DNA of 64,000 bases, from assembly GCF_900172325.1 (NCBI RefSeq), contig NZ_FWFR01000004.1, forward strand, positions 248,001 through 312,000, given 5' to 3'. Below, piece after piece: positions 20,247-39,218 of this stretch. The position numbers were made by a program, and so were the translations under genes. A model generated the notes under the pieces. It was not told the DNA's origin, did no database searches, and worked only from the letters and a program-made list of their open reading frames with translations. This stretch comes from Oceanibacterium hippocampi (GTDB taxonomy: Bacteria; Pseudomonadota; Alphaproteobacteria; Sneathiellales; Sneathiellaceae). Positions within the stretch are counted from its first letter, which is position 1. Each line of letters starts with the position of its first letter.

Positions 20247-20330
20247 ATGCAGGTGGTCGCGGTTGATCGCTCGGGCACGGAAGCATACGTGCCGACGGAC
20301 TTCGCAGTATTGCCCGAGGGCAACCGGTAG
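20247..20330 (+). CDS. Possible 27-aa small protein coupled to the acyl-AMP ligase gene
   Basis: MQVVAVDRSGTEAYVPTDFA... (27 aa) has GAGGGG 7 bp upstream of its ATG. Its TAG stop shares a base with the GTG start of the next gene (TAGTG), the arrangement expected for re-initiation. It may be a genuine small protein or a device that controls translation of the sphingolipid operon. Confidence 0.4.
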   Translation: MQVVAVDRSGTEAYVPTDFAVLPEGNR

Positions 20331-22159
20331 TGATTGTGAACAACACGTATCCTGAAGCGGTGAAAATGAAGCCGACGCCGACGAAGAACAGCAGCCTTGC
20401 CTATCGGACCGTGGGATGTGCCTCGGTTGCCGAGGGGCTCGACTATGCTGCGCAAGGCGAGACCGGCTGCAATTTCTACGGCAATCGCGGCGTGCTTGCC
20501 CATGTGGTGCCCTATGCGGAGATCCGCCGCCGGGCGCTGGCCGTCGCCGCGCACCTTGCCGGCCTCGGGTTGCCGCGCGGCAGCCGGATCGCCATCGTGG
20601 CCGAGACCGACCCCTATTTCCTGGTCTTCTTCTACGCCTGCCAGTATGCCGGCCTGGTGCCGGTGCCAATGCCGATCAGCATCAATTTCGGCGGGCGTGA
20701 CTCCTATGTCGGCCGGCTGCGCGGCATGCTCCGGGTCTCCGAGGCCCGGCTCGCGATCGGCTCGGAAGACCTGATCGCCTCGTTGCGCGAAGCGGCATTC
20801 GGTGTCGAGCATTGCATCGTCGGCACGCCGGACGAGATCATGGCGCTGCCGGAGGCGGGCGCACCACTGCAGCCCCTCGGTGCCGACGAGGAATGCTACA
20901 TCCAGTTCTCTTCAGGCTCGACGCGCGACCCGAAGGGCGTCGTCGTGACGCAGCGGGCACTGATCGCCAATGCCACCGGCATCGTTCGCGACGGCGTCGA
21001 ACTGACGGCCGACGACCGCTGCGTCTCGTGGCTGCCGCTCTATCACGACATGGGCCTGGTCGGCTGCTGCCTGTCGCCGATGCTGTGCCAGACCACGGTC
21101 GATTTCATCCCGACCACCGTGTTCGCGCGCCGGCCCTTCCTGTGGCTGCAGATCCTTTCGGACAATCGCGGGACGATCTCGTTCAGCCCGACCTTCGGCT
21201 ACGAGCTTTGCCTGCGCCGCGCGAACAACCGGGGCATGAATGGCTTTGACCTGTCATCCTGGCGGGTTGCCGGGATCGGCGCGGAAATGATCCGGCCCGA
21301 GGTGTTGCGCCAGTTCGCGACCCATTTCGGCGGGTTCGGCTTCGACGGCCGCGCGTTCCTGCCGTCCTACGGGCTTGCGGAATCGACGCTCGCGGTTAGT
21401 TTCGCGCCGCTCGGCGAAGGCGTCCGCGTCGACAGGGTCGACCGCCAGCATCAGGCCCGCCACGGCGTTGCCCTGCCGCCGAAAATGAACGGCCATTCGC
21501 GGCCGGAGGATGTCCGGTCCTTCGCGATCTGCGGCCGCGTGCTGCCGGGTCACCAGCTTGAGGTGCGCGACGACCAGGACCGCCGCGTCGGCGACCGGGT
21601 GATCGGCCGCATCTGCATTGCCGGGCCGAGCCTGATGGCGGGCTACCTGCGCAATACCGAGGCCTCCGGCGCGACGCTGCAGGCTGATGGCTGGCTCGAT
21701 ACCGGCGATCTCGGCTACCTGATCGACGGCGAACTTGTCGTGACCGGCCGCCGCAAGGACCTGATCGTTCACAACGGCCGCAATATCTGGCCGCAGGACC
21801 TGGAGTGGGCGGTCGAATCCCTCGACGTCGTGCGGGCCGGCGATGTCGCGGCCTTCTCTGTCGATGATGGCGAGCAGGAATCGGTGATCGTCGTCGTCGA
21901 ATGCGGCCTGATGGACACTGCGGCGCGGGATTGCCTGCGCCGCGAGGTCGCGGGCCTGGTTCAGAGCGCCGCCGGCATCGAATGCGAGGTCATTCTGGTG
22001 CCGCGCTCGACGCTGACCTTTACCTCTTCCGGCAAGCTCAGCCGCGCGGCGGTCAAGGCCGACTATCTGGCCGGCGCCTTCGATGCCGGCCCGAGCACGC
22101 CGCCGCGTCGCCTGACGCCGGTCGAAACCGGGGCGGAAGTCAGCGTCGGCAGCGACTGA
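20330..22159 (+). CDS. Fatty acyl-AMP ligase of the ceramide pathway
   Basis: 609 aa (GTG start; ATG 20366 would remove 12 residues). ATP-grasp-type adenylation signature YIQFSSGSTRDPKGVVVTQ, the FAAL-typical LPLYHDMGLVG, GWLDTGDLGYL and the catalytic lysine in TFTSSGKLSR are all present. FAAL enzymes activate fatty acids as acyl-AMP and load acyl carrier proteins rather than CoA. An acyl carrier protein and serine palmitoyltransferase follow in the same operon. In Caulobacter an equivalent ligase is needed for ceramide, so it probably supplies acyl-ACP for sphingoid-base synthesis. Confidence 0.85.
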   Translation: MIVNNTYPEAVKMKPTPTKNSSLAYRTVGCASVAEGLDYAAQGETGCNFYGNRGVLAHVVPYAEIRRRALAVAAHLAGLGLPRGSRIAIVAETDPYFLVFFYACQYAGLVPVPMPISINFGGRDSYVGRLRGMLRVSEARLAIGSEDLIASLREAAFGVEHCIVGTPDEIMALPEAGAPLQPLGADEECYIQFSSGSTRDPKGVVVTQRALIANATGIVRDGVELTADDRCVSWLPLYHDMGLVGCCLSPMLCQTTVDFIPTTVFARRPFLWLQILSDNRGTISFSPTFGYELCLRRANNRGMNGFDLSSWRVAGIGAEMIRPEVLRQFATHFGGFGFDGRAFLPSYGLAESTLAVSFAPLGEGVRVDRVDRQHQARHGVALPPKMNGHSRPEDVRSFAICGRVLPGHQLEVRDDQDRRVGDRVIGRICIAGPSLMAGYLRNTEASGATLQADGWLDTGDLGYLIDGELVVTGRRKDLIVHNGRNIWPQDLEWAVESLDVVRAGDVAAFSVDDGEQESVIVVVECGLMDTAARDCLRREVAGLVQSAAGIECEVILVPRSTLTFTSSGKLSRAAVKADYLAGAFDAGPSTPPRRLTPVETGAEVSVGSD

Positions 22160-22201
22160 TCGCGGCGAATTCCCGACTTACGAAATCCAGCAGGAGGGCC
22201 G

Positions 22202-23143
22202 GTGCGCGGAACCGTGGCACTGACCGGTGCGACCGGCTTCGTCGGCCATGCGATCGCCCAACGGCTGATCGGCGACGGCTGGCGGGTTCGTGCCATGACA
22301 CGGCGTCCGTCGGAGGCGCTTGCCGGGCTTGGCGCCGCGACCTGGGCGGGCGATCTCGGCAGCGTCGAGCGACTCCGGGAGTTCGTCACCGATGCGGATG
22401 CGGTCGTGCATTGCGCCGGGCTGGTCCGGGCGCGCCGGGCGGACGACTTCGCCGCCGTGAATGCCGGCGGCACCGCGCGGCTGCTCTCGGCGGTTCGTGA
22501 GCAGGGCAATCCGGCCCGATTTCTCTACATCTCATCGCTCGCGGCCCGCCATGCCGAGATTTCCCACTATGCGGCAAGCAAACGGGCGGCCGAGGAAGCG
22601 GTGCGCGCCGCGGCCGTCGATATCGACGCCGCGGTCGTCAGGCCGCCGGCCATCTACGGACCGCGCGACCGGGCGACGCTTCCGCTGTTCCAGTTGCTTG
22701 CCCGAGGCTGGCTGCTGATGCCGTCGCCGGCGACGGCGCGCTTCTCGCTGCTGCATGTCGACGACCTTGCCGGCGCGGTCGCCCATCTCCTCGAGCAACC
22801 GCGCCTTGGCGGCGTGACTGTCGAGCCGGACGATGGCCGCGACGGCGGCTACGACTGGCCGGCCCTGGCGGCGATCGCGGCAGCCCGCCTCGGTCGCCCG
22901 GTTCGCCCCGTCCGGCTGCCGCATGCCCTGCTTCTGGCGATCGCCGCCGGCAACCAGACGATTGCCCGCCTGGTCGGGCAGGCGCCGATGCTCTCCCTCG
23001 ACAAGCTCCGCGAGATGCGATTTCCCGACTGGGTCTCCGAACCGCCCCAGTCGGCGATCCTCGACGACTGGGCGCCGCGCCTGCGGTTTGAAGAGGGCTT
23101 CGCTCAGACCCTCGCCTGGTATAGAACAGCGGGATGGGTATGA
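22202..23143 (+). CDS. cerR: CerR-type NAD(P)-dependent reductase (epimerase/dehydratase fold)
   Basis: 313 aa from GTG 22202, which has AGGAGG 5 bp upstream. The N-terminal VALTGATGFVGHAIAQRL is the extended-SDR nucleotide motif and YAASKRAAEEAV gives the YxxxK catalytic pair. In Caulobacter an SDR gene beside spt (cerR) reduces the 3-keto group of the ceramide intermediate. Position between the acyl-AMP ligase and the ACP supports the same role. Confidence 0.8.
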   Translation: MRGTVALTGATGFVGHAIAQRLIGDGWRVRAMTRRPSEALAGLGAATWAGDLGSVERLREFVTDADAVVHCAGLVRARRADDFAAVNAGGTARLLSAVREQGNPARFLYISSLAARHAEISHYAASKRAAEEAVRAAAVDIDAAVVRPPAIYGPRDRATLPLFQLLARGWLLMPSPATARFSLLHVDDLAGAVAHLLEQPRLGGVTVEPDDGRDGGYDWPALAAIAAARLGRPVRPVRLPHALLLAIAAGNQTIARLVGQAPMLSLDKLREMRFPDWVSEPPQSAILDDWAPRLRFEEGFAQTLAWYRTAGWV

Positions 23144-23144
23144 C

Positions 23145-23237
23145 ATGACCGTGGTCGACGGAACGCGAAGCGCGCGGCCGATACCGCCGGCCATGCCGTT
23201 CAGGCCCGGCAACATTCAGACGTGCAGGACGCCATGA
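23145..23237 (+). CDS. Possible 30-aa linking open frame between cerR and the ACP gene
   Basis: MTVVDGTRSARPIPPAMPFR... starts 1 bp after the cerR stop and ends in an ATGA overlap with the ACP start. There is only a weak purine-rich stretch (GGGATGGG) before it. It could be a translated coupler that carries ribosomes across the 90-bp gap; equally it may be chance. Confidence 0.25.
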   Translation: MTVVDGTRSARPIPPAMPFRPGNIQTCRTP

Positions 23238-23494
23238 CAAGCTCCCCGGAAAACCATCGCGATGCGCTGACGGGCAAGGTCGCCGAATTGCTCGAGCGCT
23301 ACAACAAGACCGGCATCGCGGTGACCGCCGACACCGACCTCAGTGCCGATCTCGACATCGACTCGGTCTCGGCCATGGATCTGATCATGGAGATCGAGGA
23401 TCACTTCGACATCGATATTCCCGTCAACATGGCCGCCGACATCCGCAAGGTCGGCGACCTGGTGGCGGTGGTCGAACAGCAGCTCGGCGGTTAG
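23234..23494 (+). CDS. Acyl carrier protein dedicated to sphingolipid synthesis
   Basis: 86 aa from ATG 23234 (AGGA 4 bp upstream). Helix II starts at DLDIDSVSAMDLIMEIEDHFDIDIP, with S44 the phosphopantetheine attachment serine; the motif is DSV rather than the DSL of fatty-acid-synthase ACP. It lies between cerR and spt, so it should carry the acyl chain activated by the FAAL to serine palmitoyltransferase. A dedicated ACP in the spt operon is also known from Caulobacter. Confidence 0.9.
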   Translation: MTSSPENHRDALTGKVAELLERYNKTGIAVTADTDLSADLDIDSVSAMDLIMEIEDHFDIDIPVNMAADIRKVGDLVAVVEQQLGG

Positions 23495-23501
23495 GACGAA
23501 C

Positions 23502-24704
23502 ATGGACATTTTCGAGAAGTATCGCGGCCTGATCGCGCGCCATGACCGGATGCTCGAAGCCGCCGGCGACCCGTTCAATGTCTGCATGGAGCGCCTGATC
23601 TCGCCGACCGAGGCGATCATCGACGGCAAGCGGACGATCCTGTTCGGCACCAACAACTATCTCGGGCTGACCTTCGATCCGCATTGCATCGAGCAGTCGG
23701 CGGCCGCGGTGCGGGAGCAGGGGACCGGCACCACCGGCTCGCGGATCGCCAACGGCACCTACAAGTCGCACCGCGATCTCGAGACCGAGATCGCCGGCTA
23801 CCTGGGCAAGCGGACGGCGCTGGTCTTCTCGACCGGCTACCAGGCGAACCTGGGAACACTGGTCGGGCTCGCCGGGCCGGACGACATCATCCTGATCGAT
23901 GCCGATTCCCACGCCAGCATCTATGACGGCTGCAAGCTGACTGGCGCGACGGTGATCCGCTTCCGCCACAACAATCCGGCCGATCTCGACAAGCGGCTTG
24001 CCCGCATCGAGAACAAGGAACAGGTCAAGCTGGTCGTCGTCGAGGGCATTTACTCGATGTTCGGCGACATGGCCCCGATCGCCGAGTTCGTCGACGTGAA
24101 GAAGCGCCACGGCGCCTTTCTGATGGTCGACGAGGCCCATTCCTTCGGCGTTTCCGGCGATCATGGCCGAGGCGTCGCGGAGGCGGAAGGGGTCGAGGCG
24201 GACGTCGATTTCGTCGTCGGGACATTCAGCAAGAGCCTCGGCGCAATTGGCGGCTATGCGGCGTCCGACCATCCGGATTTCGATACGCTCCGCTTCGTCA
24301 GCAGGCCCTACATGTTCACCGCCTCGCCGTCGCCGGCGACCGCGGCCTCGGTCCGCGCGGCGCTGGAATGCATGCGCGACCGGCCGGAACTGCGCACCCG
24401 GCTGTGGGAGAATGCCCGCCGCATCCATCAGGGCCTCGAGGCGCTCGGCTTCGAGACCTGTTCGCCGGCGAGTCCGATCATCGCGCTCAGGATGTCCGAC
24501 GAGGTCGCGGCGCTGACCGCCTGGCGTCGGCTTCTCGATCACGGAATCTATGTCAACCTGGCGGTCCCGCCGGGCACGCCGAACGGCGTCTGCCTGTTGC
24601 GCTGCAGTGTTTCGGCGGCGCACAGCAATGCCCAGATCGACGAGATCCTCAGGCGGTTCGGCGAGGTCGCGAGCGAGATCCTGACCGTCGCGGACGCCGG
24701 CTGA
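23502..24704 (+). CDS. spt: Serine palmitoyltransferase
   Basis: 400 aa, soluble bacterial type with no membrane helix. It is an alpha-oxoamine synthase: DSHAS (H138 stacks on PLP), MVDEAHSFGV (D210, H213) and GTFSKSLGAIGG with K244 as the PLP lysine. It condenses serine with an acyl thioester to 3-ketosphinganine. The family also contains KBL, BioF and HemA. The ACP 7 bp upstream, the FAAL and the ceramide synthase across the locus settle the call as Spt rather than BioF. Confidence 0.92.
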   Translation: MDIFEKYRGLIARHDRMLEAAGDPFNVCMERLISPTEAIIDGKRTILFGTNNYLGLTFDPHCIEQSAAAVREQGTGTTGSRIANGTYKSHRDLETEIAGYLGKRTALVFSTGYQANLGTLVGLAGPDDIILIDADSHASIYDGCKLTGATVIRFRHNNPADLDKRLARIENKEQVKLVVVEGIYSMFGDMAPIAEFVDVKKRHGAFLMVDEAHSFGVSGDHGRGVAEAEGVEADVDFVVGTFSKSLGAIGGYAASDHPDFDTLRFVSRPYMFTASPSPATAASVRAALECMRDRPELRTRLWENARRIHQGLEALGFETCSPASPIIALRMSDEVAALTAWRRLLDHGIYVNLAVPPGTPNGVCLLRCSVSAAHSNAQIDEILRRFGEVASEILTVADAG

Positions 24705-24711
24705 AACCGGC

Positions 24712-24738
24712 CGTCGGGCCTCAGCGGAAGGCCCGGCG
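24712..24738. terminator. Stem-loop between convergent spt and nucleotidyltransferase genes
   Basis: CGTCGGGCC and GGCCCGGCG pair over 9 positions (one G-T) around a 9-nt loop that includes the stop codon of the leftward gene. It could act on both transcripts, but there is no T-run. Confidence 0.4.
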
Positions 24739-25626
24739 TCGCCGGAGCCTCGCGAACAGCGTCACCGAGGCGAGCACCGGGTGCCGGCGCTGCCAGGGGG
24801 TCAGTTCGATCGGCACGCCGGAATGGCGTTCGATCTTCCAGGCGAGATAATCGGCGCCGCCCTCGAAGGTGGTCGATGCCTTGAGCAGCCGGACCACGCT
24901 CATGAGCTTGCCGAGGAGGCGGCGCAGGCGCCAGCGCCGGGCCGCCGCCCGGGGCGAGCGCAAGGCACCACCCGTCCCCTCGTTCTCGGCGTCGAGCGCG
25001 GCGGCGACCGCCCGGTAGCGCCCGGCGTCGGCCTCGAACAGTTCGCGCGCCCGATCCGGGCTTTCCGCGCGCAGTTCCGTCGCATAGCTCTCGCCCAGCG
25101 CCCGGGTCCAGAGCGCGTCCGGATCGCCGGCAGGGACCAGCGGGCGGGTTTCGTCCAGCAGCGTGCGGGCGGCTCGCGCCAGGCTGGCCAGCAGGCGTTC
25201 CCGGGTCGCCTCGTCGCGCGCCCGGAGGATCGCCGTCGGCTGCGCGAAGCGGCCCCAGAAATAGGGCAGTAGCGCCCCCGGTCCGTTGCGCCGCTCGAAC
25301 TGGTCGAGGCTGACAAGGGCATATTTCGCGCGCACCCTGATGCCGTCGAAATCGCCTTCGATATAGTAGACGTTCGGCGGTACCAGCCAGTTGGCCAGGC
25401 GCATCAGCGGATTGCGGTGCACGGACCGGTAACCGTCGCAGATCAGGTAGAAGTCGAGCATCCGGCCTTCGACGATGCGGTCGCGCAGGCAGCTTCCGTA
25501 GAGCAGCACGGCGACGATCGCGCTGCCGTGGCGGGCCACGGCGGCATCGGCGAGACCGTCGACCCCTGGCAGTGGCGGCGCATTGGCCCCGGCGGCCAGC
25601 AATTGATGCAGGGTGCCGCCGCCCAC
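24721..25626 (-). CDS. Nucleotidyltransferase-fold protein, Tam41-like, probable sphingolipid head-group enzyme
   Basis: 301 aa, GTG start 2 bp after the kinase gene's stop. An NTase pattern YGSCLRD at 43-49 is followed by MLDFYLI at 56-62, as in Tam41-type phosphatidate cytidylyltransferases; the C-terminal half is basic and helical. No signal peptide. Last gene of the lptF-lptG-kinase unit. A cytidylyl or similar transfer onto ceramide phosphate en route to a phosphoglycerate head group would fit, and Caulobacter makes ceramide phosphoglycerate with genes near its spt. The exact step is inferred. Confidence 0.6.
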   Translation of the reverse strand: MGGGTLHQLLAAGANAPPLPGVDGLADAAVARHGSAIVAVLLYGSCLRDRIVEGRMLDFYLICDGYRSVHRNPLMRLANWLVPPNVYYIEGDFDGIRVRAKYALVSLDQFERRNGPGALLPYFWGRFAQPTAILRARDEATRERLLASLARAARTLLDETRPLVPAGDPDALWTRALGESYATELRAESPDRARELFEADAGRYRAVAAALDAENEGTGGALRSPRAAARRWRLRRLLGKLMSVVRLLKASTTFEGGADYLAWKIERHSGVPIELTPWQRRHPVLASVTLFARLRRRRAFR

Positions 25627-25628
25627 GG

Positions 25629-26609
25629 TCAGATCCTCAGGAAGTCGAGCCGATCGGCCGCCGACAGGATGACCGGCTTGCCGGGCTCGGGATCGTAAAG
25701 CTGTCCGTCGAGGGTGAAGCGGCAGGTCATGTCGAGTTCGACGCGGCCTGCGCCACAGCTCCGGTAGCCGGCCGGCAGGGCGCGCTCGGGCCCGCCGTAG
25801 AGCAGCTTGCCCGCGCGGCGGAACAGGTGGTCGGGCGGATAGTCGATGGCCGTGAAGCGGAGCGGCTCGCGGTCATCGTTCCAGAACGGGCGGGAGCCCA
25901 GCACAAGCCGGTCGAGTGTCGTCGCCAGCACGAGCAGGCGCTCGGCTTCGGGCCTGACCTCCCCGTCGATCCGGATCGATACATTCTCGCCACGCAGCAC
26001 CGAGCCCTCGGCGCCCCGGAATAGCCAGTTCGCGAGCAGTCCAAGAAGGGTGACGCCGTTCGCGAGCGCTGCTTCCAGGCCCAGTGAATGGACCCGGTCC
26101 CGGCAGAGCTCGATCGCCTGCACGATTGCCGCGGCGCCGAAGAACATGCCCCGCTGGGGCGGAAAGCCGGCCGCGTTCTCCAGACGCAGGACGTGACGGT
26201 TGCGGATCGCCGGTTCCGGCCCGTCGCCGGCAAGCCCGCGATGGAGCTTGCGGAGCGCCGATCCGGGTCGACCGGTCAGGCCGACATCGGCGGCCGTCAT
26301 GTTCGTCATGCCGCGCGGCAGGATGGCGATGGCCGGCGGCGACTCGAAGGGGCGGTCCTCGAGAATGTGGGTGAGCCCGGCCTGGACCGTCCCGTCGCCG
26401 CCGTTCAGGGCGACCACGCGGGTCCCGTCGGCGGCCAGGTGGCGCAGGATATCGGGCATTTCAGCGACGTCGCCGAGCTTGTAGTGGTCGATGCCCGGCA
26501 GGTCGTCGAGCACCGCCTCGATCGCCTCCATGCCACGCCGGTTGCGCTGGCTGAGCGGGTTGCTGATGAGCGCGAAATGGCCGCGCCGGCTTCTGTCGGT
26601 CATGGTCAT
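25629..26609 (-). CDS. Ceramide-kinase-like lipid kinase (DAGK catalytic fold)
   Basis: 326 aa. The diacylglycerol-kinase nucleotide motif VVALNGGDGTVQAGLTHIL (GGDGT at 70-74) and the later AIAILPRGMTNMTAADV match lipid and sphingosine kinases. Soluble, probably at the inner face of the membrane. Within a ceramide locus, phosphorylation of ceramide is the likeliest role; Caulobacter has such a kinase encoded near spt. Start ATG 26609 (an in-frame ATG follows two codons on), 7 bp after lptG. Confidence 0.78.
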   Translation of the reverse strand: MTMTDRSRRGHFALISNPLSQRNRRGMEAIEAVLDDLPGIDHYKLGDVAEMPDILRHLAADGTRVVALNGGDGTVQAGLTHILEDRPFESPPAIAILPRGMTNMTAADVGLTGRPGSALRKLHRGLAGDGPEPAIRNRHVLRLENAAGFPPQRGMFFGAAAIVQAIELCRDRVHSLGLEAALANGVTLLGLLANWLFRGAEGSVLRGENVSIRIDGEVRPEAERLLVLATTLDRLVLGSRPFWNDDREPLRFTAIDYPPDHLFRRAGKLLYGGPERALPAGYRSCGAGRVELDMTCRFTLDGQLYDPEPGKPVILSAADRLDFLRI

Positions 26610-26616: not shown

Positions 26617-27729
26617 TCAGAGGGGATGGCGGCGCTGGCGTTCGGCGCCGACCCCGGTAGCCGCCGGCTCGCGCCGGAAAAGCAGCGTCGCGGCGAGACT
26701 GAACAGCGCGATCGGCGGTCCCCACGCGCTGAGCCATGGCGGCAGGAAGCCGACGGCGCCGGTCGCGAGCGCCCAGCGTTCCAGCATCATGTAACCGAAA
26801 CCGAAGGCGATCGTCGCAATCAGAAGGCGCGTGAACGACGCGGCGAGACGGCCGTCATGAGCCAGCGCGACGACCAGCAGGATGATCAGGATCGGCTTGA
26901 CGATCCCGGCGAGGCGATGGTGGAACCACGACGCCAGCCGCTGTCGGGCCAGGGTGCCCTGGGTGTCGTCGTTCTTCAGCTTGTAGAGCAGCGGCAGCGA
27001 CAGTTCGCGCGGTTCGCGGGCGAGCAGGCCGATATTCTCGAGCGGAAGCTCGGCGTTCCATTCCTCCCTGTCATGTCGTATCGCGCGCGAGGATTCGACG
27101 GGGTAGCGGGTCACGTCCTCGAACTGCCATCCGGTCCGGGTCGGATGGGCCCGCTGCACGTCGATCCGCTCGACCAGGATTCCGTCCGCGGCCCGCCGGA
27201 AGATGCTGAAGGGATTGGCGATGCCCTCGGCGCTCGCGGTCGCCGGGAAGCGGAAGATCAGGTCACCGTGATGCACCCAGACGACATCGTTGGGGTTGTT
27301 GCTGGAGATGTCGCGATAGGGTCCGAGACCACGGTCGCGCAGCCCGTCGGCGGCATAGGGCACCGCGACATTGTCGAGCGTCACGCTGAACAGGACGAGC
27401 AGCGCGGCCGCGGGCCAGAGGCTCCGGACGACGCCGAAATTGGACAGGCCGGTATTCCAGAGCGCGACCAGTTCCCGGTGCCGCATCAGTTCGCCGAAGG
27501 CCAGTGCCGTGGCCAGCAGGCTCGCGATCGGCATCAGGTCGGCGGCGATGTCCGGCAGGCGGAGAAGGGCGTAGCCGGCAAGCGCCGGGATCCCGCCGCC
27601 TTCGCGCGCGAGAACGTTGTCGGCGCGCTCCATCAGGTCGAAACTGAGCGCGAGCATGACCCCGCCCGCCATCAGGAAGGCAAAGCGGACCAGCATGACG
27701 ATGCTGAGATAGCGGGCGAAGGTCGTCAT
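26617..27729 (-). CDS. LptG-like permease (YjgP/YjgQ family)
   Basis: 370 aa. Three N-terminal membrane helices (residues about 8-120), a periplasmic beta-jellyroll-type middle and three C-terminal helices are visible, as in LptG. ASLLATALAFGELMRHRELVALWNTGLS is the cytoplasmic coupling-helix region. It overlaps lptF-like by ATGA and leads directly into the lipid kinase. Placement inside a sphingolipid operon, not with lptA/B/C, suggests a paralogue that extracts an anionic sphingolipid from the inner membrane. The housekeeping LPS pair could instead simply reside here. Confidence 0.85.
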   Translation of the reverse strand: MTTFARYLSIVMLVRFAFLMAGGVMLALSFDLMERADNVLAREGGGIPALAGYALLRLPDIAADLMPIASLLATALAFGELMRHRELVALWNTGLSNFGVVRSLWPAAALLVLFSVTLDNVAVPYAADGLRDRGLGPYRDISSNNPNDVVWVHHGDLIFRFPATASAEGIANPFSIFRRAADGILVERIDVQRAHPTRTGWQFEDVTRYPVESSRAIRHDREEWNAELPLENIGLLAREPRELSLPLLYKLKNDDTQGTLARQRLASWFHHRLAGIVKPILIILLVVALAHDGRLAASFTRLLIATIAFGFGYMMLERWALATGAVGFLPPWLSAWGPPIALFSLAATLLFRREPAATGVGAERQRRHPL

Positions 27730-29982: not shown

Positions 29983-30018
29983 GTCTTGCCTTCCGCCGTC
30001 GTCGCTATCCGGCACCGG

Positions 30019-32836: not shown

Positions 32837-33739
32837 TCAGGCCGCGAGCTTCGGCGCCCTGTCGAGCAGCTCGAAGGCGTCGTGGCGGACATGGTTGCGT
32901 TCCATCTCGTCGCGGATCATCTGCTCGGTCACGATCCCGCGCTCGATGCATTCGCGCAGCAGGCCGAAGAAAAAGCGCTCCTGGTTGCCGTCCGGATGAC
33001 GACGGTATTTGCCGAGGAAGGCGTGTTCGCCAAACATCCGGCGGCGCCAGCGCATGACCCATCCGAGCGGCGGGAAATGCGGATAGGTGTCGGACGGGGT
33101 CCAGTCGATGGGCAGGCCTGTCTTCCACGGCTGGGTCAGCCGGCGGGTATTGTGCAACAGCTTCGTCGCCGGCGTCAGGCGGTCGAAATCGTTCCATTCC
33201 GGTTCGATCAGGCCGATCGATCCGGCCGGCTCGAGCTTGAGCGAGATCCACGGCATGTAGTCCCGCTGGCCGGTGAACATCTCGTTGAACTGCTGCTCGG
33301 TCTTCCAGTGTGTGAGCCTGGCGCAGTCGAGCAGCATCACCGAGGAGGCGTAGAAGCCGCGCCAGCCTTTCGGCCCGCTTCGTGCCCGGCACAGGATGGC
33401 CTTGCCTTCCATGTCGCGGTCGAGCAGCTCGCGGATGTCGCCGACGGCGAAGATGTCCGGGTCCATGACCACGGCCCGGCCCTCGTAGCCCATCAGTTCC
33501 GGCGGCATGAAGCGAAGCGGCGTGAAGGACTGCAGGTCGTCGTTCCGCCAGGGCCGGGTCACGCCGTCACGGAGATATTCCTGGCCTTCACGTGCCGCCA
33601 TGAAGGGATGGTCGGCGGTGTCGATGATGCGCACGTCGAAGCTGTCGGCGCTGGCCGAGTTCCGTTTCAGCGAATACTGGGCGACAAGGGCGCCGAGCAT
33701 CTGCCGATGATTGGTATGAATGAAAACGCATGGCCTCAT
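32837..33739 (-). CDS. Glycosyltransferase-like protein, GT8-like, copy 1
   Basis: 300 aa, soluble. It starts MRPCVFIHTNHRQMLGALVAQYSLKRN; AVVMDPDIFAVGDI carries a DxD metal and nucleotide-sugar motif, preceded by GYEGRA, as in GT-A-fold glycosyltransferases. It lies 22 bp upstream of the hydroxylase gene. A gap-free paralogue is at 37076-37978, clearly more than half identical by eye. Transfer of sugar to ceramide is the favoured role. Confidence 0.65.
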   Translation of the reverse strand: MRPCVFIHTNHRQMLGALVAQYSLKRNSASADSFDVRIIDTADHPFMAAREGQEYLRDGVTRPWRNDDLQSFTPLRFMPPELMGYEGRAVVMDPDIFAVGDIRELLDRDMEGKAILCRARSGPKGWRGFYASSVMLLDCARLTHWKTEQQFNEMFTGQRDYMPWISLKLEPAGSIGLIEPEWNDFDRLTPATKLLHNTRRLTQPWKTGLPIDWTPSDTYPHFPPLGWVMRWRRRMFGEHAFLGKYRRHPDGNQERFFFGLLRECIERGIVTEQMIRDEMERNHVRHDAFELLDRAPKLAA

Positions 33740-33817: not shown

Positions 33818-34747
33818 TCAGGTAACAGCTTGTTTCAGCTTCGCATCCTGGTAGCCGAAGGCCGGGTCCAGCCGGTCGTGCACCATCGCCTCGATCGCGG
33901 CGATCTGTTCGTCGCTGAAATAGTCGCGGAAGCCGCCGACCTTGGCGCGACGCACCTTGTAGGAATTGGGGTTGCTTTTGTCCTTTGCAACCATCCGGCT
34001 GCCGCTCAGCCAGAAAGTCCGCTTCTCTTCCATCTTGCGCATGTTGTCGACCGAGGAGAAGGCGACCGCCTCCTTCACTTCCTCGGCGCTGCCCGGCGTG
34101 CCGAGGAATTCGACGAGCCTGGCCAGCTCGCGCTCGGCGTCAGTGCGCATGTCCTCGTAGCGCATGATGTAGAGGCCATTGATGCGCGGCGCCTCGCGGG
34201 CCCAGAGATTCATCCAGTCGATGATCTTCGGCAGGCCGGCATTCTCGTCCATGACGAAGTCGAAGGGCTCGATCTCGGCGTTGTGGGCCGGATAGTCGTT
34301 GAGCGCCTTCTTCGCCGGGCGCATGCGGAACTTCCACTGGAAATACTGGGAAACCGCGACATCCGCCGGGTTGCGGACGAGCAGCACGACCTTGCTGTCG
34401 TAATAGTCGGCCTTGCTGGCGGCGTTGCCGGTATAATCCTTCAGGTAATTGTCGTGCGTGAAGAACAGCTTCGGGATCGCGGCGTTCTTCCGGTGCAGAT
34501 TGTCGAAGCCGATCAGATGGCGCTCGGCAAGTCCGTGCTTGACCTGATAGAAGCGGGAGATCATGACCCGCAGCCAGGTGCGCCCGCTCTTGCCGAACGA
34601 CACGACGACGCCGTCCGCGAGCCTCAGCTTGCGCGCCTCCTCGCGGCCGCGCAGCCAACGCTCGATGCGTATCTTGCGCGCCTTCGGCAAAAAGAAGAGG
34701 AGCAGGAGCGTGAGCTCCCGGGTCAGTTTTTTCAGAAGTACATGCAT
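33818..34747 (-). CDS. PAPS-type sulfotransferase
   Basis: 309 aa from ATG 34747. The 5'-phosphosulfate loop is VSFGKSGRTWLRVM (residues 49-62) and the 3'-phosphate motif VLLVRNPADVAVSQYF (121-136). RAKVGGFRDYFSDEQ near the C terminus matches the cytosolic-sulfotransferase GxxGxWK-type segment. A hydrophobic patch, LTLLLLFFL, at about 12-20 may hold it at the membrane. Placed among glycosyltransferases of a ceramide locus, it predicts sulfation of a glycosphingolipid. Confidence 0.82.
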   Translation of the reverse strand: MHVLLKKLTRELTLLLLFFLPKARKIRIERWLRGREEARKLRLADGVVVSFGKSGRTWLRVMISRFYQVKHGLAERHLIGFDNLHRKNAAIPKLFFTHDNYLKDYTGNAASKADYYDSKVVLLVRNPADVAVSQYFQWKFRMRPAKKALNDYPAHNAEIEPFDFVMDENAGLPKIIDWMNLWAREAPRINGLYIMRYEDMRTDAERELARLVEFLGTPGSAEEVKEAVAFSSVDNMRKMEEKRTFWLSGSRMVAKDKSNPNSYKVRRAKVGGFRDYFSDEQIAAIEAMVHDRLDPAFGYQDAKLKQAVT

Positions 34748-34894
34748 GGTCGTAGGGCCCGTTGCGCGCGCGGGCGCGCTGTTAGCGCCCTCAGATAGCA
34801 AGGGACGGCCGGTGACGCAACGAAGGATGCGGATCGGCATGCGACCGATCGCCGCGTCCGGCGCGCGGATCTTCAACCGGGACGGGCGGAACGG

Positions 34895-35818
34895 ATGGCG
34901 CGTCACCTAGTCGGCGCGCGGTTGCAGCGTCTCGCGGCGACGCGGCCGCGCCTCCAGGCGCTGCTCTGGCGCGTGGATTCGGCGGCTCTGTCCCTGTTCT
35001 GGCTGATTGCCCGGGCCCTGCCCCGCAAGGCCGCCTGCCGCTTCGGCGCGGCCCTGTTCGGTCTGTTCGGACCGTTGACCCGGAAATCCGGGCATGTCCG
35101 GCGGAATCTTTCGATCGCGCTGCCCGGCCGCTCGCCCCGAGACATCGCCGCGACGACCCGCGCGGTCTGGGCCAATCTCGGCGCGGTGCTTGCGGAAATG
35201 CCGCATCTGACCGAGCTCGGCCCGGGGCAGATCGAGATCGTCAATGGCGAACTGGCGCAGGCACTGGCCGAGGCGGGAAAGCCGGCTGTCTTTGTCCTGC
35301 CGCATCTGGGCAACTGGGAAGTGGCGGCGCTGGCCGCGGCCATGACCGGCGCGCCCGTCAATATCGCCTACACGCCGCAGGCCAATCCCTATCTCGACCG
35401 GCTCGCGCAACGCTGGCGCAACGCGGCGGGCGGCAACTGGATCGGCACCCGGGGCGGAGCCCGGGCGATCGCGCGGGCGCTTTCGAAGGGCGAGATCGTC
35501 GGCATGCTGACCGATCTCCGCATCGACGATGGCGAGCCGGTGCCGTTCTTCGGCCGGGAGGCGATGACAACCACCGTGCCGGCCCGCCTCGCGCTCCGCT
35601 TCGACGCGCCCCTGGTCCCGCTCCGGATCGAGCGTCAGCCGGACTGGCGCTATCGCGTCGTGCTGTCGTCGCCGATCGAACCCGATCGCTCGCTCGGAAG
35701 CGACGCCGCGATCGCCCTCGACATGACGCGCCGGGTCAACCTGCTGTTCGAGGAATGGATCGCCGCCGCGCCGGGACACTGGCTCTGTGCCAAGCGGCGC
35801 TGGCCGCGAAGGCGCTAG
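34895..35818 (+). CDS. LpxL/HtrB-like lipid acyltransferase
   Basis: 307 aa. An N-terminal membrane-associated helix (AALSLFWLIARALP) is followed by the acyltransferase motif PHLGNWE, giving H137-x4-E142, and later by MLTDLRIDDGEPVPFFG. The family adds secondary acyl chains to lipid A. Here it lies inside a sphingolipid/glycolipid gene group, divergent from the sulfotransferase, so the acceptor may be a glycolipid other than lipid A. Confidence 0.82.
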   Translation: MARHLVGARLQRLAATRPRLQALLWRVDSAALSLFWLIARALPRKAACRFGAALFGLFGPLTRKSGHVRRNLSIALPGRSPRDIAATTRAVWANLGAVLAEMPHLTELGPGQIEIVNGELAQALAEAGKPAVFVLPHLGNWEVAALAAAMTGAPVNIAYTPQANPYLDRLAQRWRNAAGGNWIGTRGGARAIARALSKGEIVGMLTDLRIDDGEPVPFFGREAMTTTVPARLALRFDAPLVPLRIERQPDWRYRVVLSSPIEPDRSLGSDAAIALDMTRRVNLLFEEWIAAAPGHWLCAKRRWPRRR

Positions 35819-35838
35819 CCGCTCCGGTTCCGGGCTTG

Positions 35839-35851
35839 CCATTGTCAATGG
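35839..35851. promoter_or_regulatory. CCATTG-T-CAATGG dyad upstream of the first ELM1-like gene
   Basis: A perfect 6-bp inverted repeat with one central base, 23 bp before the larger palindrome at 35874. Its location between the acyltransferase stop and the ELM1-like start suits an operator; nothing identifies the binding protein. Confidence 0.25.
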
Positions 35852-35873
35852 GTTTCGCCACTTTCTCTCCCGC

Positions 35874-35897
35874 CCATGGCCTCGAGGCCATGGTTTT
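35874..35897 (+). terminator. Probable intrinsic terminator (perfect 20-bp palindrome plus TTTT)
   Basis: CCATGGCC-TCGA-GGCCATGG is perfectly symmetrical and is followed at once by TTTT. It lies 55 bp after the acyltransferase stop and 24 bp before the next start. It is the best terminator-like structure I found in the window. Confidence 0.55.
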
Positions 35898-35921
35898 CCG
35901 CAGTTCCAGGACCCGGACAGG

Positions 35922-37055
35922 ATGACATCGCCGACCGACCCCCGCGAGACCCCGATCGTCTGGCTGATGATGGGCCACAAGGCCGGCGACAATTCGCAGG
36001 TGCTGGCGATGGCCGAGGCGCTCGAGTGGCCGTTCGAGATCAAGCGCTTCGTCTACCAGAAATACGAGATCATCCCCAATTTCACCTTCGGCCCGACCCT
36101 GAAGGGCATCGTTCCCGAGAAATCGAGCCGGCTCGAGCCGCCCTGGCCGGACCTGATCCTCTCCGCCGGGCGCCGGAACGAGCCGATCTGCCGCTGGATC
36201 CAGAATCGCGCGAAACCGGAAAAGCATGTCCGGATGGTCCATATCGGCCGGCCCTGGGCGAGGATCGAGCGCTTCGACCTGATCGTGACGACGCCGCAAT
36301 ACCGGCTGCCGGACAAACCGAACGTGCTGCACAACAAGACGCCGCTGCACCGGATCACCGACGAACGGCTGGCCGAGGCGGCGGCGGAATGGGCGCCGCG
36401 CTTTGCCGAACTGGCCCGGCCCTATGTCGCGGTGGTGATCGGCGGCTCGAGCGGGCCCTATGGTTACGACCAGGAAGCGGCCGCCAGGCTCGGCCGGATG
36501 GCCGGCGAAAGGGCGCGGGCGCTCGGCGGCTCGGTACTGGCGACGACCAGTGCCCGGACCCCGGCGGCGACGCACGATACCTTCCAGCGCGCTCTCGAGG
36601 TGCCGAACCATCTCTTTCGCTGGCGTGCCGACGCGCCTGAGAATCCGTATTTCGGAATGCTCGGCCTGGCCGACGAGATCATCGTCACGGGTGACAGCAT
36701 GTCCATGCTGACCGAAGCCTGCGCCACCGGCAAACCGGTCCATATCTTCGATATCGGCGTCGGCAAGAAGGCGATGCGCCCGGAAACGGCGGCTGCGGCG
36801 CGCGCCAGCGAAGGCCCGGATCGCCCCGAATGGGCCCATATCCAGGCCTTCTTCTACCGGCTCATGATGAACCACGGACCGCAAAGGCTGTCGCGCGACA
36901 TCCGCCTGGTCCACAAGCTGCTGGTCGAGAACGGGCACGCGGTCTGGCTCGGCGACCCTTTCCCCGACGACCGGCCGCCGCCGCCTATCGACAGCGTTCC
37001 GCTCGCGGTCGCGCGCATCAAGGCGCTGTTCGAGCAGCCGGCGCCGCGCTGCTAG
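35922..37055 (+). CDS. ELM1/DUF1022-family GT-B-like protein, copy 1
   Basis: 377 aa from ATG 35922. VWLMMGHKAGDNSQVLAMAEAL at the N terminus is the family hallmark, as are LEPPWPDLILSAGRRN, VHIGRP and DEIIVTGDSMSMLTEA. The fold is that of GT-B glycosyltransferases; bacterial members are annotated as mitochondrial-fission ELM1-like and have no firm function. It lies between an LpxL-like and a glycosyltransferase gene, pointing to surface or sphingo-glycolipid synthesis. It is paralogous to 38100-39218. Confidence 0.78.
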   Translation: MTSPTDPRETPIVWLMMGHKAGDNSQVLAMAEALEWPFEIKRFVYQKYEIIPNFTFGPTLKGIVPEKSSRLEPPWPDLILSAGRRNEPICRWIQNRAKPEKHVRMVHIGRPWARIERFDLIVTTPQYRLPDKPNVLHNKTPLHRITDERLAEAAAEWAPRFAELARPYVAVVIGGSSGPYGYDQEAAARLGRMAGERARALGGSVLATTSARTPAATHDTFQRALEVPNHLFRWRADAPENPYFGMLGLADEIIVTGDSMSMLTEACATGKPVHIFDIGVGKKAMRPETAAAARASEGPDRPEWAHIQAFFYRLMMNHGPQRLSRDIRLVHKLLVENGHAVWLGDPFPDDRPPPPIDSVPLAVARIKALFEQPAPRC

Positions 37056-37075
37056 TTTGGTGCCCCGCGCTCGAT

Positions 37076-37978
37076 TCAGGCGGCGAGCCGCGGCGTCCGG
37101 TCGAGTACCTCGAAGGCGTCGTGGCGGACGTGATTCTGGCGCATTTCCTCGCGCAGCATCGCTTCGGTGACGATCCCCTGGTCGATGCATTCCCGGAGCA
37201 GCCCGAAGAAGAACCGTTCCTGGTTGGGGTCCGGATGCGCCTTATAATGGCCGAGCAGGGCGTAGTCGCCGAGCAACCGCCGGCGGACCCGGTTGAACAG
37301 GCCGAGCGAGAGCACGCCCGACGGCTTCTCCGGCGGCATGAAATCGACCGGCAGGCCGGTCTTCCAGGGCTGGGTCTTGCGCTTGGTATTGTGCAGGAGG
37401 CGGGTTTCCGGCGTCAGCCTATCGAAATCGTTCCAGTGATTCTCGAACAGACCGATGCTCTCCCGGTCCTCGTACTGCAGCGAGATCCAGGTCATGTAAT
37501 CGCGCTCGTCGGTGAACAGGGCCTCGAAATCGCGCTGGCAATTCCAGTGCGTCAGCTTCGCGCAATCGAGGAGCATGACGCTCGACGCGAAATGTCCGCG
37601 TTTCTCCTTCGAACCGGACCGCGGCCGGCACATCAGGGCCTTGCCCTGCATGTCGCGTGCGAGCAGTTCGCCGACATCGCGGACCGAGAAGATATCCGGG
37701 TCGATGACCAGCGCCCGGCCCTCGTAGCCCATCAGTTCGGGCGGCATGAAGCGGAGCGGGGTGAACGACTGCAGGTCGTCGTTCCGCCAGACCCGGTGCA
37801 CGCCGTCACGCAGGTAGGCCTCGCCCTCTTTCGCCTGCAGAAAGGCCTGGTCCTGGTGATTGATGACGCGGACGTCGAAACTGTCCGGATTCGCGGCATT
37901 TCGCTTGAGCGAGTATTCGCTGACGATGGCGCCGACGATCTGCTTGCGATTGGTATGGATAAAAACGGTGGGCCGCAT
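37076..37978 (-). CDS. Glycosyltransferase-like protein, GT8-like, copy 2
   Basis: 300 aa, aligned without gaps to copy 1 (32837-33739): the same MRP.VFIHTN start, GYEGRALVIDPDIFSVRDV DxD motif and QERFFFGLLRECI near the C terminus. The two differ most around residues 40-55 and 220-245, so they may use different sugars or acceptors. It is convergent with ELM1-like copy 1. Confidence 0.65.
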   Translation of the reverse strand: MRPTVFIHTNRKQIVGAIVSEYSLKRNAANPDSFDVRVINHQDQAFLQAKEGEAYLRDGVHRVWRNDDLQSFTPLRFMPPELMGYEGRALVIDPDIFSVRDVGELLARDMQGKALMCRPRSGSKEKRGHFASSVMLLDCAKLTHWNCQRDFEALFTDERDYMTWISLQYEDRESIGLFENHWNDFDRLTPETRLLHNTKRKTQPWKTGLPVDFMPPEKPSGVLSLGLFNRVRRRLLGDYALLGHYKAHPDPNQERFFFGLLRECIDQGIVTEAMLREEMRQNHVRHDAFEVLDRTPRLAA

Positions 37979-38099
37979 TCCTGGCTTCCTCCTGCCCGTG
38001 CACAGCAGTCCGATTCGTACCAGTTAATCGAAGCAAGCCTGCTCCGCAAGCCGGACGCATGCGATATCGGGCGCCGTGCGGGCTTCCCCGGGCGCGCGG

Positions 38100-39218
38100 T
38101 CAGGGTTCGTGAAAGAGCCCGCGAATCCGCTCCGCGACCATCGCCGCCTCGTCCGGGAACCGGTCGCTCGGCACGGCGAACGGTGCGGGCAGGATCGTCG
38201 CGACACCGCTCTCGGCGAGTTTGCGGTGGAAGCGGTCGAAGTCCCGGGAGAAGCCGACCAGTCCGATCCGGTAGAGCGCCTGCCCAAGCGGCGCAACCAG
38301 ACGCCCGAGGGCGCCGGCGTCGGGTGCCGGATGGAGCAGGCGGCCGAACGCGAGGCGCGCCCGGGTCGCGATACCGCCGGCGATCGGCAGCGGGTAGATG
38401 GCCAGCGGCCGGCCCAACCGGACGACTTCGACCATCATCGAGACGCTGTCGCCGGTCACGATGAACCGGTCGGCCAGGGCGAGCAGCGCGCGATAGGGAT
38501 TCTCGGCCGCGCCGGCTCCCCAGCTGAAGAGCCGTGCGTTTGCCGGAAGCAGCCGGCGAAGGGCATCAACTGCTTCCGGCCGGGTGCGCCGGCTGGTCGT
38601 GAGATAGAGCGTCCCGCCCTCGCCATGGGCGGCGAAGGCGGCGTCGAGCAGGTCATTCGCGGCCGCCTCGTCGAAGCGGAACGGCTTGGTCGCGCCGCCA
38701 ACCAGCACGGCCGTGATCGGCCGGGGCAGGGCCGCGAAACGCTCGGCCCATTCGGCGGCGGCGGCGGCGATCGCCGCCTCGTCGACCCGCATCAGCGGCA
38801 ATTCCAGATGAACGACATTGTCGGCCGACGGCAGCCGGTACTGCGGCGTCGCGATGACCAGCGCGATGTCCGACATGTACTTCTTCGGGCGGCCCAGCAT
38901 GACGATCTTCGTCCGGTTGCCCGATTGCCTGCGTACCCAGAGCGCCGCCATCGACGGGCGCCGGCCGACGGTCAGGATCAGTTCGGGCCAGGGCGGCTCG
39001 AGCGGCGCGGAGCGTTCCGGGTCGATATGGTAGAGCGAAGCCTCGAAAGCCGGCTTGCCAAGCTGGTACTCCGGCTTGAAGACGAGATCCTTGCGCTCGC
39101 AGGGCCAGCCGAGCGCGTCGGCGATCACGCTTACCTGGGCGTTGTCGCCAAGCTTGTCGCCGAGCAGGAGCCAGGTTCCGGGCGTCGCTTCGGGTCGACC
39201 TGAAGGGAATTCGGACAT
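38100..39218 (-). CDS. ELM1/DUF1022-family GT-B-like protein, copy 2
   Basis: 372 aa. WLLLGDKLGDNAQVSVIADALGWP, LEPPWPELILTVGRRPS, VMLGRPKKY and DRFIVTGDSVSMMVEV repeat the copy 1 hallmarks, but overall divergence is much greater than between the two GT8-like copies. Probably a glycosyltransferase of the same lipid pathway; the substrate is unknown. Confidence 0.75.
   Translation of the reverse strand: MSEFPSGRPEATPGTWLLLGDKLGDNAQVSVIADALGWPCERKDLVFKPEYQLGKPAFEASLYHIDPERSAPLEPPWPELILTVGRRPSMAALWVRRQSGNRTKIVMLGRPKKYMSDIALVIATPQYRLPSADNVVHLELPLMRVDEAAIAAAAAEWAERFAALPRPITAVLVGGATKPFRFDEAAANDLLDAAFAAHGEGGTLYLTTSRRTRPEAVDALRRLLPANARLFSWGAGAAENPYRALLALADRFIVTGDSVSMMVEVVRLGRPLAIYPLPIAGGIATRARLAFGRLLHPAPDAGALGRLVAPLGQALYRIGLVGFSRDFDRFHRKLAESGVATILPAPFAVPSDRFPDEAAMVAERIRGLFHEP

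What the first reader, a model, noticed from the sequence alone, without database searches (positions are those of the whole stretch)
20330..39218. A broad sphingolipid locus: synthesis, kinase, hydroxylase, decoration and export in about 19 kb
Seen: genes for FAAL, CerR-like SDR, ACP, Spt, bCerS-type acyltransferase, di-iron hydroxylase, DAGK-fold kinase, two nucleotidyltransferase-like proteins and a metallophosphoesterase. Alongside them are an LptF/G-like pair, two GT8-like proteins, a sulfotransferase, an LpxL-like enzyme and two ELM1-like proteins, with ATGA couplings within sub-operons. Known: Caulobacter makes ceramide with Spt, a dedicated ACP and ligase, CerR and bCerS, and phosphorylated or glycosylated forms from nearby genes. 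Inference: this organism makes a hydroxylated, phosphorylated and possibly glycosylated and sulfated sphingolipid, with more tailoring genes than the Caulobacter set I recall.
Basis: partly seen in the sequence, partly recalled or inferred. Interest (0 to 1): 0.82.

Follow-up and report, generated by a model that had tools for sequence, protein, structure and literature searches.

The report
Sphingolipid locus with sugar-sulfate decoration genes
This bacterial DNA stretch holds a complete gene set for making and exporting a hydroxylated phospho-sphingolipid of the Caulobacter type, and joined to it is a cassette of sugar-transferring and sulfate-transferring genes that recurs beside such clusters in other bacteria and probably adds a negatively charged sugar group to the lipid, a step not described before.

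Summary
The core is the known proteobacterial phosphosphingolipid cluster: aasR-cerR-acpR-spt plus cpgC, cpgB, lptG2/lptF2, a metallophosphoesterase, a CofC-like nucleotidyltransferase, cerS and an Scs7-like hydroxylase. Spt passes the curated serine palmitoyltransferase cut-off. The hydroxylase is common (adjoins cerS in 31 of 75 CerS loci). The locus is not simply 'Caulobacter plus more': no CpgA was found in the genome and no clear CpgD, so CPG2 is not expected. LpxL is the ordinary lipid A enzyme of the class and does not belong. What is new is a cassette of two GT8-fold transferases, two divergent ELM1 paralogs and a PAPS-type sulfotransferase. GT8a lies 21 nt upstream of the hydroxylase-cerS operon. 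GT8 occurs in 18 of 385 class genomes, 15 of them CerS+, and on 12 plasmids, all CerS+, inside clusters of Roseomonas mucosa and a conjugative Diaphorobacter plasmid. In one family GT8 and ELM1 are fused just upstream of hydroxylase-cerS. The characterised ELM1 protein, KdoT, transfers Kdo; its key arginine is kept here. Best reading: a hydroxylated ceramide-phosphate lipid carrying an acidic, probably sulfated, glycan. Acceptor, sugar and sulfate site are inferred.

The parts
20330..22159 (+). aasR: fatty acyl-AMP ligase, loads the dedicated ACP
   Evidence: PF00501; NCBIfam NF006624 fatty acyl-AMP ligase 764 bits over cut-off 600
22202..23143 (+). cerR: SDR, ceramide reductase
   Evidence: PF01370; adjacent to aasR/acpR/spt in many genomes
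23222..23494 (+). acpR: dedicated acyl carrier protein
   Evidence: PF00550; between cerR and spt in relatives
23502..24704 (+). spt: serine palmitoyltransferase
   Evidence: NF047599 equivalog 636 bits, cut-off 500; BioF/Kbl models below their cut-offs; best PDB hit Spt 2x8u E 6e-131
24721..25626 (-). cpgC-like: TAM41-fold cytidylyltransferase, probably ceramide-1-phosphate to CDP-ceramide
   Evidence: family members hit PF09139 Tam41 (best 1e-6); AlphaFold model pLDDT 92, top PDB hits Tam41 with CTP; same position as CC_1161; 41% to the Roseomonas copy
25629..26609 (-). cpgB-like ceramide kinase
   Evidence: PF00781; NGGDGT motif, no CxxxCxxC; position next to cpgC
26617..27729 (-). lptG2: LptG-type permease
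   Evidence: PF03739; nearest LptG model but below its cut-off
27726..28946 (-). lptF2: LptF-type permease
   Evidence: PF03739; nearest LptF model, just below its cut-off
29077..30015 (-). metallophosphoesterase, CC_1158 position
   Evidence: PF00149; recurrent in clusters, 45% to Roseomonas
30019..30858 (-). CofC-like nucleotidyltransferase, CC_1153 position; probably activates phosphoglycerate
   Evidence: PF12804; profile hits TTHA0179 and weakly 3-phosphoglycerate guanylyltransferase 7p97; 47% to Roseomonas copy
30855..32057 (-). cerS: bacterial ceramide synthase
   Evidence: 50 of 385 class genomes carry it, mostly in sphingolipid clusters
32054..32815 (-). Scs7/FA2H-like di-iron hydroxylase, probably hydroxylates the amide-linked acyl chain
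   Evidence: PF04116; histidine motifs invariant; only PDB hits Scs7, E 2e-14; adjacent to cerS in 31 of 75 loci
32837..33739 (-). GT8a: GT8-fold glycosyltransferase, in the hydroxylase-cerS operon
   Evidence: 21 nt upstream of hydroxylase; 67% to GT8b; family has GT8 fold
33818..34906 (-). PAPS-type sulfotransferase
   Evidence: PF00685; conserved PAPS-loop residues; PDB sulfotransferases E 7e-20; relatives beside ELM1 and GT8
35922..37055 (+). ELM1a: KdoT-like GT-B glycosyltransferase paralog
   Evidence: PF06258; SART with the key second Arg; outside the canonical ELM1 clade
37076..37978 (-). GT8b: second GT8-fold glycosyltransferase
   Evidence: AlphaFold model pLDDT 78, top PDB hits GT8 proteins GlyE, LgtC, LARGE1
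38100..39218 (-). ELM1b: second KdoT-like paralog
   Evidence: PF06258; SRRT motif; clade 100/100 with ELM1s next to sulfotransferase/GT8
34895..35818 (+). lpxL: lipid A acyltransferase; inside the interval but probably not part of the pathway
   Evidence: PF03279; single copy in nearly all of 103 of 143 relatives with a match, 22 of 25 same-family genomes, none of which have CerS

Best explanation
The locus makes, decorates and exports an outer-membrane sphingolipid. AasR loads a fatty acid on AcpR; Spt condenses it with serine; CerS and CerR complete dihydroceramide; the Scs7-like enzyme hydroxylates the amide-linked acyl chain; CpgB phosphorylates ceramide; the TAM41-fold CpgC activates ceramide-1-phosphate as CDP-ceramide on the way to a phospho-headgroup, with the CofC-like enzyme activating the glycerate-type partner; LptF2/LptG2 lift the lipid towards the outer membrane. 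Those steps match a cluster studied genetically in Caulobacter (the CDP-ceramide and CofC steps are inferred). On top of this, the GT8/ELM1 pairs add one or more sugars to the headgroup: ELM1 would transfer an acidic keto-sugar (Kdo or a relative) from its CMP form and GT8 another sugar; the sulfotransferase puts a sulfate on that glycan. The product would be a strongly anionic glyco-phosphosphingolipid, in which sugar acid and sulfate could do the job that the second phosphoglycerate does in Caulobacter CPG2. Shown here: gene identities, order, co-occurrence, fusion and folds. Inferred: acceptor, sugar identity, order of steps and site of sulfation.
For: Core: families; same cluster in many proteobacteria, named in Roseomonas and Diaphorobacter; Caulobacter genetics, PMC11324152, PMC12275187. 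CpgC fold: 82, 109, 113. Hydroxylase: 38, 39, 90; a cluster lacking it carries a desaturase-type gene instead, as Caulobacter uses CC_0202. Decoration: sulfoT-78 nt-GT8a-21 nt-hydroxylase in one direction; GT8-ELM1 fusion directly upstream of hydroxylase-cerS in three genomes of another family, with a sulfotransferase upstream in one; GT8 in 18 of 385 class genomes at E<1e-20, 15 with CerS (55, 22; Fisher p 4e-12, or about 3e-6 counted by family, 62, 63); 12 of 12 GT8-bearing plasmids carry CerS, with GT8 and ELM1 inside the cluster; ELM1-sulfoT-GT8 cassettes in G183 and G256 and sulfoT-ELM1b in a Mangrovimicrobium sphingolipid locus; ELM1a and ELM1b lie apart from the universal ELM1 copy; [quoted passage not shown] NeuB, epimerase and CMP-sugar synthetase genes beside GT8 in family f95; APS kinase in the genome for PAPS.
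Against: No lipid data; no enzyme here has been assayed. The organism also makes LPS (LpxC), so GT8, ELM1 and sulfotransferase could act on LPS core. G095 carries two GT8/ELM1 cassettes without detectable CerS (82% complete). In G183 and f131 further GT8 copies lie far from the ceramide genes. No CpgA-type CDP-alcohol transferase was found in the genome, so how CDP-ceramide would be used is open. ELM1a is on the opposite strand from the operon.
Confidence: 0.55

Rival explanations
1. Ceramide core and export as above, but GT8a/b, ELM1a/b and the sulfotransferase decorate LPS core oligosaccharide; they sit here because the locus is an envelope-lipid island that also holds lpxL.
For: The characterised ELM1, KdoT, works on Kdo2-lipid A. 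LpxC is present and lpxL lies between the GT genes. Some GT8/ELM1 cassettes lie away from ceramide genes, and one genome without detectable CerS has two. In Caulobacter glycosphingolipids are made by other transferases.
Against: The 25 same-family genomes have an ELM1 and mostly an LpxL (and LpxC in those tested), but no CerS, and no GT8 in those searched. GT8 tracks CerS. The fusion and operon position point to the ceramide genes. The third, canonical ELM1 of this genome is available for LPS.
Confidence: 0.3
2. The product is plain ceramide phosphoglycerate (CPG) with an alpha-hydroxylated acyl chain; the sugar and sulfate genes serve an unrelated exopolysaccharide or capsule.
For: cpgB, cpgC, CofC-like and phosphoesterase genes are present while CpgA was not found and no clear CpgD was found. 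GT8 in family f95 sits with nonulosonate genes of a kind often found in surface glycan loci.
Against: GT8a is 21 nt from the hydroxylase in the same direction; GT8 and ELM1 are embedded between cerR and acpR-spt in Roseomonas and lie between an SDR gene and spt in Diaphorobacter. R. haemaphysalidis has the cluster without GT8, ELM1 or hydroxylase, showing they are an add-on to it.
Confidence: 0.12
3. The hydroxylase acts on C4 of the sphingoid base (phytoceramide type) instead of the amide-linked acyl chain (a sub-question, compatible with any of the readings above).
For: PF04116 also contains the C4 hydroxylase Sur2 (own knowledge).
Against: The family profile finds only Scs7, an acyl 2-hydroxylase, in the PDB, although Sur2 may have no solved structure. 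The Diaphorobacter cluster without it carries a desaturase-family gene (96), the kind that hydroxylates the acyl chain in Caulobacter.
Confidence: 0.2

Closest known systems
Caulobacter crescentus CC_1168-CC_1152 phosphosphingolipid cluster (PMC11324152, PMC12275187, PMC10331486)
   Same: aasR-cerR-acpR-spt in the same order, then convergent cpgC-cpgB, and cerS-CofC-like, LptF2/LptG2 and phosphoesterase genes
   Different: CpgA not found in the genome and no clear CpgD; LptC2 and flippase not seen at the locus; an Scs7-like hydroxylase is next to cerS (Caulobacter uses a distant DesA-type gene); GT8, ELM1 and sulfotransferase genes added
Roseomonas mucosa p1-AD2 and Diaphorobacter sp. JS3051 pDCB2 plasmid clusters
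   Same: complete ceramide/CPG clusters that also contain GT8 and ELM1; Roseomonas has the hydroxylase before cerS too
   Different: both have cpgA- and cpgD-type genes, one GT8 and one ELM1, and no sulfotransferase annotated in the stretch read; Diaphorobacter has a desaturase-family gene and an NRPS/P450 pair
KdoT (ELM1-like) of Acinetobacter baumannii, CMP-Kdo transferase of LOS core (PMC12856342)
   Same: ELM1 family, GT-B; conserved second Arg of SRRT kept in both paralogs here
   Different: KdoT acts on Kdo2-lipid A; these paralogs form clades apart from the canonical alphaproteobacterial ELM1 and sit in sphingolipid clusters; KdoT itself was not in the tree
Sulfate-bearing 1-deoxyceramides in the Black Sea metalipidome (PMC11334938)
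   Same: bacterial sphingolipids reported with sulfate
   Different: sulfate is placed on the acyl chain of 1-deoxyceramides from anaerobes; no sulfotransferase gene is named in the passages read
Yeast Scs7 / FA2H ceramide acyl 2-hydroxylase
   Same: histidine motifs and sequence profile (E 2e-14)
   Different: no fused cytochrome b5 domain; 253 aa

Membership tests
Proteobacterial sphingolipid (ceramide) biosynthesis cluster | bona fide Spt, not BioF/KBL | tested here: met
   NF047599 636 bits over cut-off 500; BioF and Kbl models below cut-offs; PDB Spt best
Proteobacterial sphingolipid (ceramide) biosynthesis cluster | bCerS, CerR, AcpR and acyl-ACP synthetase present together | tested here: met
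   same set in named clusters
Proteobacterial sphingolipid (ceramide) biosynthesis cluster | ceramide produced by the host | not testable with these tools
   no lipid data
CPG/CPG2 pathway | CpgB and CpgC (first phosphoglycerate) | tested here: met
   DAGK_cat with GGDG; TAM41 fold; position as in Caulobacter. Direct comparison with Caulobacter sequences was not possible
CPG/CPG2 pathway | CpgA, CDP-alcohol transferase (second phosphoglycerate) | tested here: not met
   four PF01066 genes in the genome, all in short frames (188-274 aa) and none at the locus; only about 31% over 90-115 aa to Diaphorobacter CpgA
CPG/CPG2 pathway | CpgD, phosphoglycerate cytidylyltransferase | tested here: inconclusive
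   best hit of Roseomonas CpgD among the fetched NTP-transferase loci is 29% identical, elsewhere in the genome
Lpt-type export | LptF/LptG-type permease pair at the locus | tested here: met
   PF03739 twice
Lpt-type export | own LptC/A/D partners | not tested
   no genome search left for them
Scs7/FA2H hydroxylase | histidine motifs HxxxxH, HxxHH, HxxxH, HxxHH | tested here: met
   invariant in 25 sequences
ELM1/KdoT glycosyltransferase | PF06258 domain and positively charged second residue of SRRT | tested here: met
ELM1/KdoT glycosyltransferase | CMP-Kdo transfer to lipid A | not testable with these tools
   acceptor and donor unknown for these paralogs
GT8 | GT8 fold with DxD | tested here: met
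   PF01501 0.0014 at best, a weak sequence match; Foldseek GT8 proteins at about 1e-9 to 1e-7; invariant DxD (D93, D95)
PAPS sulfotransferase | 5'-PSB and 3'-PB motifs | tested here: met
   KSGxTW, R...S, KVRRxxVGG; PAPS supply: APS kinase
Sphingolipid-specific LpxL | distribution following CerS | tested here: not met
   match in 103 of 143 genomes, 22 of 25 same-family genomes without CerS

The most novel reading that the evidence does not exclude
ELM1a and ELM1b transfer an ulosonic acid (Kdo or a sialic-acid-like sugar) from its CMP form to a ceramide-phosphate headgroup, GT8a/b extend it and the sulfotransferase sulfates it. The host would then make a bacterial counterpart of gangliosides and sulfatides, by enzymes unrelated to the animal glycosyltransferases, and the same GT8-ELM1 module would make related lipids in Roseomonas mucosa (human skin) and on a conjugative plasmid.
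Probability: 0.25. Interest if true: 0.85.

Novelty: new variant of a known kind. Interest (0 to 1): 0.6.

Why it matters
Proteobacterial sphingolipids can stand in for LPS and set polymyxin sensitivity in Caulobacter, but few headgroups have known genes. This locus points to an unrecognised, recurrent glycosylation-sulfation module tied to ceramide clusters in alpha-, beta- and gammaproteobacteria, gives a likely role to divergent ELM1 paralogs, and makes the question testable in culturable strains such as Roseomonas mucosa and Diaphorobacter sp. JS3051. It also shows that complete ceramide clusters travel on plasmids, one of them conjugative.

Tried and rejected
LpxL as part of the pathway: rejected, it is the ordinary enzyme of the class. 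Hydroxylase as a special feature of this genome: rejected, it adjoins cerS in 31 of 75 loci. GT8-like label as a misread: rejected after the fold search. ELM1 as mitochondrial-fission-like: rejected, the bacterial family is GT-B. 'A superset of Caulobacter': rejected, no CpgA found. The host's name could not be established: it lies in a small order with 26 held genomes, of which only this one has CerS. Caulobacter sequences themselves could not be fetched, so orthology with CC_ genes rests on order and on the published descriptions. The Fisher tests treat genomes or families as independent and the family total is approximate.
Full report
The window is part of a 4.83 Mb genome (G000, 18 contigs, 99.4% complete). 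Two starts need correcting: the CofC-like gene begins at the GTG at 30858, which overlaps the cerS stop as GTGA, and ELM1a most likely begins at 35922.

Core pathway. Spt passes the curated NCBIfam equivalog NF047599 (636 bits, cut-off 500), and BioF and Kbl models stay below their cut-offs. The acyl-AMP ligase passes NF006624. The CerS family occurs in 50 of 385 genomes of the class. In 75 CerS loci from both collections I find spt in 38, LptF2 in 38, CofC-like in 31, cpgC in 29, cpgB in 23 and the phosphoesterase in 24. In L092 the order spt / cpgC-cpgB-cpgA / phosphoesterase-LptF2-LptG2-(second CDP-alcohol transferase)-hydroxylase-cerS-CofC matches the published Caulobacter order CC_1162 to CC_1153, which fixes the assignments by position. 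The 301-aa frame with no Pfam hit (24721-25626) belongs to a family whose members hit Tam41; its AlphaFold model (pLDDT 92) has Tam41 with CTP as top PDB hit. That agrees with the CDP-DAG-synthase-like domain reported for CC_1161, so CDP-ceramide formation is the likely step.

Differences from Caulobacter. Genome-wide there are four CDP-alcohol transferases, all in short frames, and none resembles CpgA. No clear CpgD was found: Roseomonas CpgD finds at best a 29% relative among the fetched loci. The second phosphoglycerate of CPG2 is therefore not expected here. The hydroxylase is Scs7-like (histidine motifs invariant) and adjoins cerS in 31 of 75 loci, so it is a common part of such clusters. 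Caulobacter uses a distant DesA-type gene, CC_0202, for the acyl hydroxyl, and the Diaphorobacter cluster, which has no Scs7-like gene annotated, has a desaturase-family gene. This suggests two unrelated enzymes for one step.

The decoration cassette. On the minus strand sulfotransferase, GT8a, hydroxylase, cerS, CofC-like, phosphoesterase, lptF2, lptG2, cpgB and cpgC follow with gaps of 78, 21, -4, -4, 3, 130, -4, 7 and 2 nt. GT8a is therefore very probably co-transcribed with the hydroxylase and cerS. GT8 is rare: 4 of 143 relatives by single sequence, 18 of 385 class genomes by profile at E<1e-20. Of those 18, 15 carry CerS, against 35 of the other 367 (Fisher p 4e-12 by genome; about 3e-6 by family; genomes are related, so these are guides). 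In plasmids, all 12 records with GT8 also carry CerS. In Roseomonas mucosa p1-AD2, GT8 and ELM1 sit between cerR and acpR-spt. In the conjugative IncP plasmid pDCB2 of Diaphorobacter they sit between an SDR gene and spt. Roseomonas haemaphysalidis has the cluster without them, so they are an optional add-on.

Fusion and partners. In three genomes of family f131, GT8 and ELM1 are one open frame directly upstream of hydroxylase-cerS, and in one of them a sulfotransferase precedes it. ELM1-sulfotransferase-GT8 cassettes recur in G183 and G256, and G095 has ELM1, GT8, sulfotransferase and ELM1 together. In the gammaproteobacterium Mangrovimicrobium sediminis a sulfotransferase and an ELM1b relative (52%) follow LptF2/LptG2 in a ceramide cluster. 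In family f95 GT8 stands with NeuB, a UDP-GlcNAc 2-epimerase relative and, in one genome, a CMP-sugar synthetase relative.

What the cassette enzymes are. GT8b folds as GT8 (model pLDDT 78; GlyE, LgtC, LARGE1 as hits, E about 1e-9 to 1e-7). The ELM1 family has one characterised bacterial member in the papers read, KdoT, a CMP-Kdo transferase in which the second Arg of SRRT is critical and Lys is tolerated. ELM1b keeps SRRT, and ELM1a and most relatives keep S-x-R-T. A tree puts the canonical single-copy ELM1, including this genome's third copy, on one side (98/92), and the window's two paralogs with the cassette ELM1s on the other (100/98); ELM1b groups with the G183, G095, f131 and Mangrovimicrobium copies at 100/100. 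The cassette rows were picked from these neighbourhoods, so the tree shows separation, not frequency. The sulfotransferase keeps its PAPS motifs, and APS kinase genes are present.

LPS as a rival acceptor. LpxC is present. The lpxL gene at 34895 is the ordinary one of the class: found in 103 of 143 genomes, among them 22 of 25 same-family genomes, none of which has CerS. Those relatives have LpxC where tested and one ELM1, yet show no GT8 match. That favours the sphingolipid as acceptor but does not prove it.

Judgement. The core is a new member of a known cluster type. The hydroxylated phospho-ceramide prediction is strong on gene evidence (about 0.85). Glycosylation of the sphingolipid by GT8/ELM1 is likely (about 0.55-0.6) and sulfation somewhat less so (about 0.45). 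An ulosonate headgroup is the boldest reading (0.25). No literature searched here describes the cassette, though only open-access papers were covered.

Noticed in passing
L182 (NZ_CP025188 52-86 kb), L183 (NZ_CP065408 34-66 kb), L184 (NZ_CP106839 110-133 kb): Ceramide clusters lie on plasmids: complete ones in Roseomonas mucosa and on a conjugative IncP plasmid of Diaphorobacter, and spt/acp/SDR/ligase/CerS genes on a conjugative Klebsiella michiganensis plasmid.
   Followed up: partly
L136 7578-10752; L165 13114-18906: In two genomes of family f95 GT8 sits with NeuB and a UDP-GlcNAc 2-epimerase relative; in one also a CMP-sugar synthetase relative, a methyltransferase and a GT8-ELM1 fusion, which looks like a nonulosonate glycan operon.
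   Followed up: partly
L092 7127-8335, L138 5695-6987, L183 21752-22960: A second CDP-alcohol phosphatidyltransferase-type protein often sits between LptG2 and the hydroxylase or cerS, or beside ELM1; it could be the missing enzyme that condenses CDP-ceramide with its partner. Absent here.
   Followed up: no
L182 20711-21178, L183 25231-25674: A HIT-family protein lies between the phosphoesterase and LptF2, at the position of Caulobacter CC_1157, which was called unrelated.
   Followed up: no
L183 14921-18210: An NRPS and a cytochrome P450 are embedded in the Diaphorobacter ceramide cluster.
   Followed up: no
G000:C16:1664967-1673783: Two NTP-transferase genes and a stand-alone APS kinase lie within 9 kb elsewhere in the genome; possibly a sulfated surface glycan locus.
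   Followed up: no
L134, L135 (G095): A genome without detectable CerS (82% complete) has two GT8/ELM1 cassettes, one with a sulfotransferase.
   Followed up: partly
window 14105-19779 and 41647-46296: The locus is flanked by an oligopeptide/dipeptide ABC transporter operon and by a molybdopterin oxidoreductase/Fe-S/DmsC-like operon.
   Followed up: no
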